The translations under genes were made by a program, and so were the position numbers. DNA of 64,000 nucleotides, from NCBI GenBank assembly GCA_026874595.1, contig CM049307.1:30602362-30666361 (forward strand). Reading direction: 5' to 3'. Below the pieces are notes generated by a model, which was not told the DNA's origin, searched no databases, and saw nothing but the letters and a program-made list of their open reading frames with translations. Of the stretch, positions 55,401-58,400 are shown piece by piece. Source of the stretch: Sipunculus nudus. Lineage: Eukaryota > Annelida > Sipuncula > Golfingiida > Sipunculidae. Position 1 is the stretch's first letter, and each line of letters starts with the position of its first letter.

Positions 55401-58400
55401 TATTTTAGATGACAGCTGCAATCAAAAGTCTTTCATATTTATGCAATGTATTGCAGGTGACAGCTGTGAACACGAGTCCCCGTCCCCTGCAGAGTGTGAA
55501 CCTGTAAAGAGTGATCACCCCGACATCATTCATGCACTCCTCTGCAGCCTGGATGAAGAAAACATGGACATGGAGATAGATGGAGGGTGCATGCCAGGGT
55601 CAGTCATCTGCACCAGCACAGTACACTAGTCTTGCCCAGCCACACTTGTTAATGTTCATATATGACACCATGAGTTAATTTTCAAACAAACCACTATAAT
55701 CCATCCCAAAACCCTTGTCGGCATGTTTTTTTAGCGATAACTATTTTAAGAATATTCTTTAAAAATGCCCTTTGGCCTGAAGTAGATAAACAGATATTCT
55801 GCTGATTTTGTGTAAAGTAGTTAAATATCATGTAAAACGTATTTACTTTGCGACTCTTTTGCATTATATTTATGTTGAATAACCGTGGATTGTCTTCCCG
55901 GCACTGCTTGACAGTACATTCCTCCATGGTACACTTTCCATGTCTATGGCTGCGTTTGGTATTTGTTAGACAACAGTGACGTCACAAAGATGTCACAGTG
56001 ATCGGTCACGCGTCATCTTCAATTGACTGACGTCATAAGTTTGACTGGCTTGTTTATTATTAGTTCTCAGGTAAGGAATAAGTCGTTAACGCTGTTACTT
56101 GTTTTGTCATATTTTGGGTTATTTGTCTCTTACAAAATCAAAGGAAGGTAAGGCATTACTTTTGACGCAGGTAGTCGGCGGAATAGCTCCTGCAACCTTT
56201 GGACAAGAAAGGTTCTCACTGCTTCACTTGTATGAAAAATTATCTCTTAAAAACGTGCAGACACGGGTACTGGGATGGACTATAGACAGCAGCAGCATAT
56301 ATTAATTAGACTGTTAAAACTGCCTCTGGTCTAAGGCAGTACTGAGTAAGACCTTAAAAACGAATGCCTTTCTCCATCGAAATCAAGAAATGTTGCTTCT
56401 CAGTCATTAAATAAATCCAGGAATCACCACATAACCATTGTCTTAGCAGCAACACACTTCCTTGAATGAGTAGATTGACATACTGATAGGCATTTGACAT
56501 ATTCTGATTCAGTGTGGCTGTTTCATTTTATCTCACTTTCATTTAAAAAAAAAAATTATTTTTTACAGCCTTCCAGATTTACAGAAAATTGGTACATTCT
56601 GAGCTAGTATTTTCTGATCAGTATATGTGCTGGCTTTATTATCACATAACATATTCATATTCACAAGAGATGTCATAAGCTAATGGTGTTACCTCAGCAT
56701 ATTTCTTTATTATTAATTATGGTAAACCGCTATTGCATATCAGCGCCATCTTTTGTTCACTTATTGATACACATAATGTTTGAGAAGGGCATTAAAACTG
56801 GAAAATTCCTTTGTATATTCTCATACATTTTAGTGGATAGCCAAAGAGAATACATAATGTTTCACTGCATTGGGCTGAAATATGATTAAGTTAACATTAA
56901 ATCAAAAAGACATTTATTTTTAACTTCCAAATCATTCAGTGTTTGAATACCAGATGGCACTGAGAAACAAAAGCGTTCATAACTGTAATAAAAATAATCC
57001 TGTTCAAAGCTACCCCATTAGTGTTTTTAAATTGTAACAGAACTTGTTTTGAATATACAGTATAAATACTATGACAGTTTATTTGAACATCATTCATTTT
57101 GATATTTTAATGTAGTTCCTATAAAGGATAAAAAATATGTCATAATTTTGATCTAAGTCATCATTTGAAAATATGAATGTTTCATTAATGAGATAATTTG
57201 TATCAATCATAATAAGTTTGTCATTCACTGGTAGAAGTATTTGTTGTAACAGGCCAATTATGGGATCCAAGAAGAAGATGGAGGGAGTTGATCTTAGTGA
57301 TTTTGCGAAACGTACCCTGAAGGAGATCTGTCACCAGGAGTGGGTCCAGGAGATGTTCCTGAAAGAACCAGAGTTGCTGTTCACACCAGAGCTGCTGCTG
57401 GATACACACCTCAGTCATAGACAGGTAAACCATAAAACACACCTCAGTCACAGACAGGTTAACCCTGAAAATCACCTCAGTCACAGATGGGTAAACCATA
57501 AAATACTCCTCAGTATCAGACAGGTAAACCATGAAAAACACCTCGGTCACAGATAAGTAAACCATGAAACACACCCGAGTCACAGACAGGTTAACCATGA
57601 TACACAACTCAGTGACAGACAGGTAAACCATGATACACAACTCAGTGACAGACCGGTAAACCATGATACACAACTCAGTGACAGACAGGTAAACCATGAT
57701 ACACACCTCAGTGACAGACAGGTAAACCATGATACACAACTCAGTGATAGACAGGTAAACCATGATACACACCTCGGACACAGATGGGGTAACTATGAAA
57801 TACACCTCAGTCATAAATATACACAGGACACTGAATAGACCTTTTCAACCTTACTAAAACCTTATGCAGGCATCCATTGGTATTGAGTGTTCAGGTCTGT
57901 TTAACTGACATGAAGATGGTATTTTGTTACATAAAATAAAAAAAAATCTAACTTATATTTCATAGTTCAGTTCCTGCATGAGCCTCTGTCTTGCTTTTAA
58001 TTTCAATTGATAAAACCTACAATACTGGCTTGTAAGAACATTATGTGGCAGATAAACATGATGGGCAGTGCCCAAGCACAGGGAAAGGTCTGATGACAAG
58101 CAGACATTAGTTGTTAGTTAGTCTGGTTCTGCTATTTGTAAGCTCTAAGGGATATTTGTCAGTCTGCTTAAAAAAGCATTTTACCATCATTGAAATACCA
58201 AACACAAAGGAGAGTTTAAATCCTATTATGAGACATATGATGCCTGTTATGATATTACAAAGTTACAGATTTGTCATTTCATGTTATCAAGATAGTGTGT
58301 GTTATCCCCCACAGGCCCAGCAGCTGGTGGAGTTGATATGTCAGCCTGACACGGAGAACGACTATAGAGACTGGAAAGATGATGAGGACATAGACACCTA

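What the first reader, a model, noticed from the sequence alone, without database searches (positions are those of the whole stretch)
57402..57800. A 33 bp minisatellite has multiplied the MED12 exon 26 splice donor in frame
The repeat unit is the last 18 bases of exon 26 plus the first 15 of intron 26, so every unit rebuilds a CAG|GTAAAC-like donor. The unit is 11 codons, and the exon frame stays open through about three extra units (VNHKTHLSHRQ, VNPENHLSHRW, VNHKILLSIRQ) before a TAA just ahead of the 57557 donor. Choice of donor could add 0, 11, 22 or 33 residues. Whether the extra donors are used is inference.
Basis: partly seen in the sequence, partly recalled or inferred. Interest (0 to 1): 0.8.

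Follow-up and report, generated by a model that had tools for sequence, protein, structure and literature searches.

The report
Splice-donor minisatellite in a MED12 gene
A short piece of DNA spanning the end of one exon of the MED12 gene has been copied about twelve times in a row, so the gene carries a row of near-identical splice signals; it looks like a passive repeat, of a kind known from one human gene and seen again at other exons of this genome.

Summary
In a MED12 gene of an unnamed lophotrochozoan (1.43-Gb genome) a 33-bp minisatellite (57404-57813, 12.4 copies) starts in the last 21-24 bases of a conserved exon and runs into the intron. GT is kept in 11 successive rows; the exon frame is open for three extra units before TAA at 57554.

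The proposed meaning, a choice of 0/11/22/33 residues, is not supported. None of 152 MED12 relatives (of 174 fetched) has an insertion there. The donor 9-mer is conserved like any other 9-mer of the unit. An antisense frame is more open than the exon frame. Four of the five extra donors identical to the first lie beyond the stop.

It is not unique. In the same gene a 29-bp and a 69-84-bp array root at other donors, and exon 23 has decayed copies of its acceptor. One of 38 sampled kinase exons has nine donors at 65-bp spacing. Genome-wide, tandem triples of donor octamers outnumber mutated or reversed controls several-fold, acceptor triples do not; long arrays dominate these counts, so this is suggestive only.

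Closest known case: the human CBS 31-bp exon 13/intron 13 VNTR. Use of the extra donors is untested: no RNA was available.

The parts
57253..57424 (+).
   Evidence: spliced model and homology to human MED12; acceptor aacag|GCCA, donor ACAG|gtaaac
57404..57813 (+). 33-bp minisatellite, 12.4 copies, first 21-24 bases exonic
   Evidence: TRF, row layout, shuffles
57425..57426 (+). first donor GT (CAG|GTAAAC), inferred main site
   Evidence: junction without insertion against homologues; U1 duplex -8.3
57458..57459 (+). extra donor, +11 residues, weaker (CAG|GTTAAC)
57491..57492 (+). extra donor, +22 residues, weaker (TGG|GTAAAC)
57524..57525 (+). extra donor, +33 residues, same 9-mer as first donor
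57554..57556 (+). TAA stop in the exon frame
57557..57756 (+). seven further GT rows (57557 to 57755), all beyond the stop; four identical to the first donor
58315..58434 (+). next MED12 exon, phase 0 (AQQLVELIC...)
52781..52891 (+). MED12 exon 19 of the model, root of a second donor-spanning array
52844..53322 (+). second donor-spanning array: six CAG|GTAAAT donors 69-84 bp apart (52892, 52961, 53031, 53109, 53188, 53272)
   Evidence: read-through stops at once
17953..18116 (+). third donor-spanning array, 29-bp unit AAG|GTAGGC, at exon 7 (17845-17955)
20940..21387 (+). same 29-bp family further down the same intron, after 2.8 kb of other sequence
55262..55598 (+). decayed tandem copies of the exon 23 acceptor (exon starts at 55262, 55310, 55409, 55457); 55409 would add 16 residues in frame

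Best explanation
A short tandem duplication straddling the exon end (about 24 exon + 9 intron bases) grew by slippage or unequal exchange into a minisatellite lying in the intron. Each unit carries a copy of the donor because the duplicated piece held it, not because the donor was selected. The first donor (57425) makes the conserved MED12 junction; the others are passive copies, used at most as splicing noise, mostly yielding stop-containing mRNA. Shown: the array, its origin from exon + intron, the conserved first junction, no sign of selection on the extra donors. Inferred: the growth mechanism and the low use of extra donors.
For: The exon part encodes conserved MED12 sequence, so copying went from exon to intron; array 2 likewise repeats conserved coding sequence. 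0 of 152 homologues have an insertion at the junction. The donor 9-mer is not specially conserved, and an antisense frame is more open. Of seven regular exon-rooted arrays seen, 2 have a period divisible by 3 (33 and 42; not 29, 41, 41, 52, 65), close to the 1/3 expected by chance; the eighth, with spacings 69, 70, 78, 79 and 84, is irregular. In the window 3 of 31 donors and 1 of 30 acceptors have a repeat copy within 600 bp (threshold 18), against about 15% of 1500 random positions. Distal units are nearly identical and proximal ones diverged, as in a turning-over array.
Against: No RNA was seen, so use of the extra donors is not excluded. In human ER-alpha exon 1 two comparable donors 33 nt apart favour the intron-proximal one (PMC6002489 passages); by that rule a downstream copy should win here and the array would not be silent. 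The genome-wide excess of tandem donor octamers hints at something donor-specific.
Confidence: 0.72

Rival explanations
1. CBS-like dosage effect: the identical downstream donors are really used, mostly making transcripts with the TAA, so array length tunes how much full-length MED12 is made.
For: Five extra donors share the first donor's 9-mer and U1 energy, and four of them lie beyond the stop. An intron-proximal donor is favoured over a comparable one 33 nt upstream in ER-alpha (PMC6002489 passages). The human CBS 31-bp VNTR at exon 13/intron 13 is listed with raised homocysteine and lowered activity (PMC1395315 Table 4).
Against: MED12 is conserved across animals, so heavy loss should be selected against (inference); no trace of selection to weaken or keep the copies. 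No RNA.
Confidence: 0.18
2. One reading: donors 57425, 57458, 57491 and 57524 are chosen to give functional MED12 isoforms with 0, 11, 22 or 33 extra residues.
For: The frame is open through three units and the join to 58315 is phase 0; 57524 equals the first donor in 9-mer and U1 energy.
Against: No insertion in 152 homologues; two of the three donors are weaker and openness is matched by an antisense frame; read-through of the other two donor arrays of the gene meets stops.
Confidence: 0.05
3. Donors seed minisatellites: in this genome something about 5' splice sites (for example U1-bound or R-loop-prone exon ends, a guess) makes them start tandem duplications, and the MED12 arrays are examples. 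This concerns origin and can be true together with the best explanation.
For: CAGGTAAR triples 4746 against 439 reversed and 1049 for CAGGAAAR; AAGGTRAGT 494 against 61; acceptor TTTCAGR 7758 against 6959, little excess. Per single octamer outside arrays: 176 and 99 for donors against 9-60 for four controls. Exon-rooted case at L055, and by eye L033, L041, L047, L048.
Against: Counts are overlapping triples in which one long array counts many times; singles come from only 171,621 unmasked bases, several with counts under 16. Within the window donors are not above the 15% background. Only 1 of 38 sampled kinase exons had a donor-spanning array.
Confidence: 0.2
4. The units act as ratchet-like or new-intron sites, since each GT row is preceded by AG in most units.
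For: Most units hold AG|GT; intron gain by a duplication crossing an intron-exon border is published (PMC4974935, abstract only).
Against: Pyrimidine content before the site is 0.41-0.59 in the array against a mean of 0.67 for the gene's acceptors, whose lowest value is 0.41.
Confidence: 0.02

Closest known systems
Human CBS 31-bp VNTR, c.1444_1467+7(16_21), exon 13/intron 13
   Same: By its name (my reading of the nomenclature) a unit of 24 exon-end bases plus 7 intron bases, with alleles of 16-21 repeats, so each unit repeats the border (PMC2630376 passages; PMC1395315 Table 4).
   Different: 31 bp is not a multiple of 3; variation among people and an effect on activity are reported there and untested here; different gene and phylum. 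The original paper (Lievers 2001) is not held.
Human CBS c.844_845ins68
   Same: A duplicated intron 7/exon 8 junction that doubles splice sites while normal mRNA is still made (PMC2630376 passages).
   Different: A single duplication, on the acceptor side (that passage writes 'donor', the cited Romano 2002 title '3' splice site'); closer to exon 23 here.
Competing donors 33 nt apart in human ER-alpha exon 1
   Same: Two comparable donors at the same 33-nt spacing, near the quoted U1 footprint (23 nt up, 12 down) (PMC6002489 passages).
   Different: Two sites, not eleven; not a repeat.
[quoted passage not shown]
   Same: A duplication crossing an intron/exon border supplies new splice signals (PMC4974935 abstract).
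   Different: No new intron is shown here.
Intronic minisatellites of other invertebrates (abalone TSSK1-like intron 3; earthworm metallothionein intron 1)
   Same: Minisatellites within introns, with repeat number differing among abalone individuals (PMC6905558 passages; PMC12783039 passages).
   Different: No overlap with a splice site is mentioned in the passages I saw.

Membership tests
Splice-donor-spanning VNTR (CBS type) | Tandem unit comprising exon end + intron start | tested here: met
Splice-donor-spanning VNTR (CBS type) | GT donor regenerated in successive units | tested here: met
   11 rows with GT, 57425-57755
Splice-donor-spanning VNTR (CBS type) | Copy number varies among individuals | not testable with these tools
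   one assembly only
Splice-donor-spanning VNTR (CBS type) | Effect on transcripts or activity | not testable with these tools
   no RNA or assay
Regulated alternative 5' splice sites with protein isoforms | Frame kept by alternative donors | tested here: met
   three donors only; the later seven include a stop
Regulated alternative 5' splice sites with protein isoforms | Conservation of the alternative sites or of the insert | tested here: not met
   0 of 152 homologues with an insertion; 16 of 33 9-mers of the unit are as conserved or more
Regulated alternative 5' splice sites with protein isoforms | Transcripts observed | not testable with these tools
   no RNA collection; no close match of this species in 3 protein searches
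Recursive (ratchet) splice site | Pyrimidine tract before AG|GT | tested here: not met
   0.41-0.59 against a gene acceptor mean of 0.67, minimum 0.41

The most novel reading that the evidence does not exclude
In this lophotrochozoan genome 5' splice sites are preferred seeds of minisatellites: tandem copying starts across exon ends, so many exons, perhaps hundreds or more, carry rows of near-identical donors, and the splicing machinery copes by keeping to the first. MED12, with three donor-rooted arrays, would be a showcase and a natural test of how one donor is picked from many equal ones.
Probability: 0.22. Interest if true: 0.7.

Novelty: new member of a known kind. Interest (0 to 1): 0.4.

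Why it matters
How the spliceosome picks one donor among several equal ones is an open question (PMC6002489 says that how the intron-proximal site is favoured is not known). Here a conserved gene carries six copies of one donor 9-mer at multiples of 33 nt, with a clear conserved answer (57425), and two further donor arrays in the same gene serve as replicates. If the genome-wide donor excess is real, splice sites would join the sequence features that shape where minisatellites arise.

Tried and rejected
Rejected: chance (score 505 against at most 51 in 200 shuffles). Rejected: openness of the frame as evidence of coding (an antisense frame is fully open). Rejected: RNA structure hiding the extra donors (mean unpaired probability 0.46 at the first donor, 0.34-0.48 at ten of the eleven other rows, 0.84 at 57557; gene donors mean 0.40, s.d. 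0.15). Rejected: the unit as part of a dispersed repeat (no other copy in the window with up to 9 mismatches; one match in the genome). Led nowhere: looking for proteins of this species. One search found 600 MED12 relatives and listed 120, the top one 54% identical; one search found nothing for a 201-residue piece; one search listed 54, at most 64% identical over short parts. Pfam on the peptides of the four exons called by eye gave nothing (0 of 4). The tree puts the species among 19 lophotrochozoan rows (support 100); the 15 mollusc rows form a clade without it (100) and it stands next to them with support 90; its letter make-up is flagged as deviating. Phylum unresolved.

Results against a special role of donors: of 38 kinase exons (20 with 600-base flanks, 18 with 300 bases) 1 had a donor-spanning array (L055) and 1 an array starting at intron base 9 (L051). 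The 38 are what I got of 58 that I picked from the 138 matches as exon-sized; 20 of the 58 were not obtained. Donors there were guessed by a weight matrix: in 7 of 38 the best candidate scored below 1, and in L088 the likely donor lay outside the scanned stretch (a partial repeat near it scored 17.5, under the 18 used). Of 18 loci fetched from the pattern hits, 4 look exon-rooted by eye, 1 (L042) is a 33-bp coding-like repeat, and for 13 the root was not seen. One search used a wrong offset and is superseded. One search was an empty script. The spacings printed for array 2 are one too small; one search gives the right ones (69, 70, 78, 79, 84).

Literature: 10 answered searches (one search listed no paper). 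In the listings I noticed no title on a class of donor-spanning minisatellites; I opened ten papers, passages or abstract only, and two of these (PMC7277093, PMC5745447) held none of the terms asked. This covers only the held open-licence papers. Lievers 2001, Eperon 1993 and 2000 and Roca 2013 are not held.

Full report
What is there. The window is C2:30602362-30666361 of a 1.43-Gb assembly; from 7313 to 63804 it holds one gene on the + strand. At least one exon is missing between 50142 and 52780. No close relative of the species showed up in the protein collection: the top hit is 54% identical (Lineus). A tree places it in Lophotrochozoa without settling the phylum.

The array. TRF reports 57404-57813, 33 bp, 12.4 copies, against a best score of 51 in 200 dinucleotide shuffles. 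The donor of exon 24 (57425) is repeated with GT in 11 successive rows. In the register of 24 exon + 9 intron bases the exon unit matches units 6-10 at 29-31 of 33, units 1-5 at 26-28 and unit 11 at 25: the distal block is young and homogeneous, the proximal block older. The last partial unit again shows CTCAGTCATA as in the exon, which fits old edges and a younger middle (inference).

Direction. The exon part encodes a MED12 segment conserved across animals, so the intron copies derive from the exon. Of 174 MED12 proteins fetched (120 of the 600 found and the 54), 152 cover the junction by 12 residues on each side; none has an insertion within 8 residues, and one has a 1-residue deletion there. 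The first donor therefore makes the ancestral product.

Donor strength. By U1 duplex energy (U1 end recalled) 57425 scores -8.3 kcal/mol; 57524, 57623, 57689, 57722 and 57755 are equal; 57458 and 57590 score -5.6, 57491 -6.5, 57656 -5.5, 57557 -4.0. Of the 30 GT donors of the gene model, 10 are stronger than -8.3. Translating each possible product, +11, +22 and +33 residues are open and the later ones hold TAA. So the only in-frame extra donor as strong as the first adds 33 residues, and four equal ones add a stop.

Selection tests. Across 12 rows the donor 9-mer has 11 mismatches, against a mean of 11.7 for the 33 circular 9-mers, 16 of which have 11 or fewer. In the six frames of the array the stop counts are 1 (exon frame), 9, 22, and 8, 13, 0 antisense. 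Neither result points to selection for coding or for donors.

Siblings. Exon 19 roots an array of six CAG|GTAAAT donors 69-84 bp apart; read-through stops at once. Exon 7 roots a 29-bp array AAG|GTAGGC, whose family continues 2.8 kb further on; read-through stops. Exon 23 has decayed tandem copies of its acceptor; the copy at 55409 has a richer pyrimidine tract than 55457 (0.71 against 0.53) and adds 16 residues in frame. That is a better candidate for real in-frame alternative splicing than the donor array. Scanning every junction, 3 of 31 donors and 1 of 30 acceptors have a repeat copy within 600 bp at threshold 18, against 15.5% of 1500 random positions and 15.2% of 1500 positions away from exons: junctions in this window are not special.

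The genome. Three CAGGTAAR in tandem (gaps 18-48) occur 2334 + 2412 times, against 298 + 141 for the reversed pattern; CAGGAAAR gives 516 + 533, against 468 + 132; AAGGTRAGT 154 + 340, against 47 + 14; the acceptor TTTCAGR 3742 + 4016, against 1524 + 5435. Divided by single octamers outside arrays in 171,621 bases held, which lean towards genes: 176 (27 singles) for CAGGTAAR and 99 (5 singles) for AAGGTRAGT; 29 (15), 24 (43), 60 (10) and 9 (7) for reversed CAGGTAAR, CAGGAAAR, reversed CAGGAAAR and reversed AAGGTRAGT. The excess is several-fold but soft: one long array counts many times. The 100 CAGGTAAR places listed are about 8 loci crowded into 3.3 Mb of C1, which cannot be typical of the whole; the 100 CAGGAAAR places are about 10 loci spread over C1 and the first 19 Mb of C2 (my reading of the listings).

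Exon-rooted examples elsewhere. L055 is a protein kinase exon (Pkinase 1.8e-22) ending GTPQYIAPEVLRSEPYSTK and followed by 65-bp units repeating its last bases, nine AAG|GTAGAT donors including its own in the stretch fetched. By eye, L033 (52 bp), L041 (41), L047 (41) and L048 (42) also start at the end of an open exon-like stretch, without Pfam support. Periods divisible by 3: 2 of the 7 regular exon-rooted arrays.

Interpretation. The array is best read as a donor-spanning minisatellite of the human CBS type (24 exon + 7 intron bases there, by its name in PMC2630376; exon 13-intron 13 in PMC1395315), passive for the protein. I put 0.72 on this. The main doubt is splicing itself: comparable donors 33 nt apart sit near the U1 footprint limit, and in ER-alpha the intron-proximal one is favoured (PMC6002489), which would predict use of stop-containing forms here. 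MED12 must somehow use 57425 enough (inference). That is testable and is the interest of the locus.

Noticed in passing
55262-55457: Tandem decayed acceptor copies before exon 23; 55409 is an in-frame alternative acceptor (+16 residues) with a richer pyrimidine tract than the conserved one.
   Followed up: partly
52844-53322: Second donor-spanning minisatellite in the same gene, six CAG|GTAAAT donors at irregular spacings of 69-84 bp.
   Followed up: yes
17953-18116 and 20940-21387: 29-bp donor-rooted array split by 2.8 kb that includes a 179-bp tandem repeat; the same 179-bp family lies at 51465-52469, and both stretches contain TTCCGACACATCTAG followed by T, as at a Helitron-like end (recalled).
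   Followed up: partly
40400-45300: GC-rich insert (57% in 40001-44000) in a MED12 intron with long open frames on both strands; six + strand open frames gave no Pfam match. Reminiscent of a DIRS-type element by recall only.
   Followed up: partly
48249-48391: 18-bp coding repeat (AHTPGM) inside exon 16 of the MED12 model.
   Followed up: no
62034: The intron after exon 29 would use a GC donor (GAG|GCAGGT) if the homologue spacing is kept.
   Followed up: no
L051 (C9:48357859-48359343): Kinase exon whose intron starts a 40-bp array (14.6 copies) at intron base 9.
   Followed up: partly
L042 (C1:74847500-74856500): 33-bp tandem repeat, 71 copies, reading like a coding repeat (SQESQPSEDKV).
   Followed up: no
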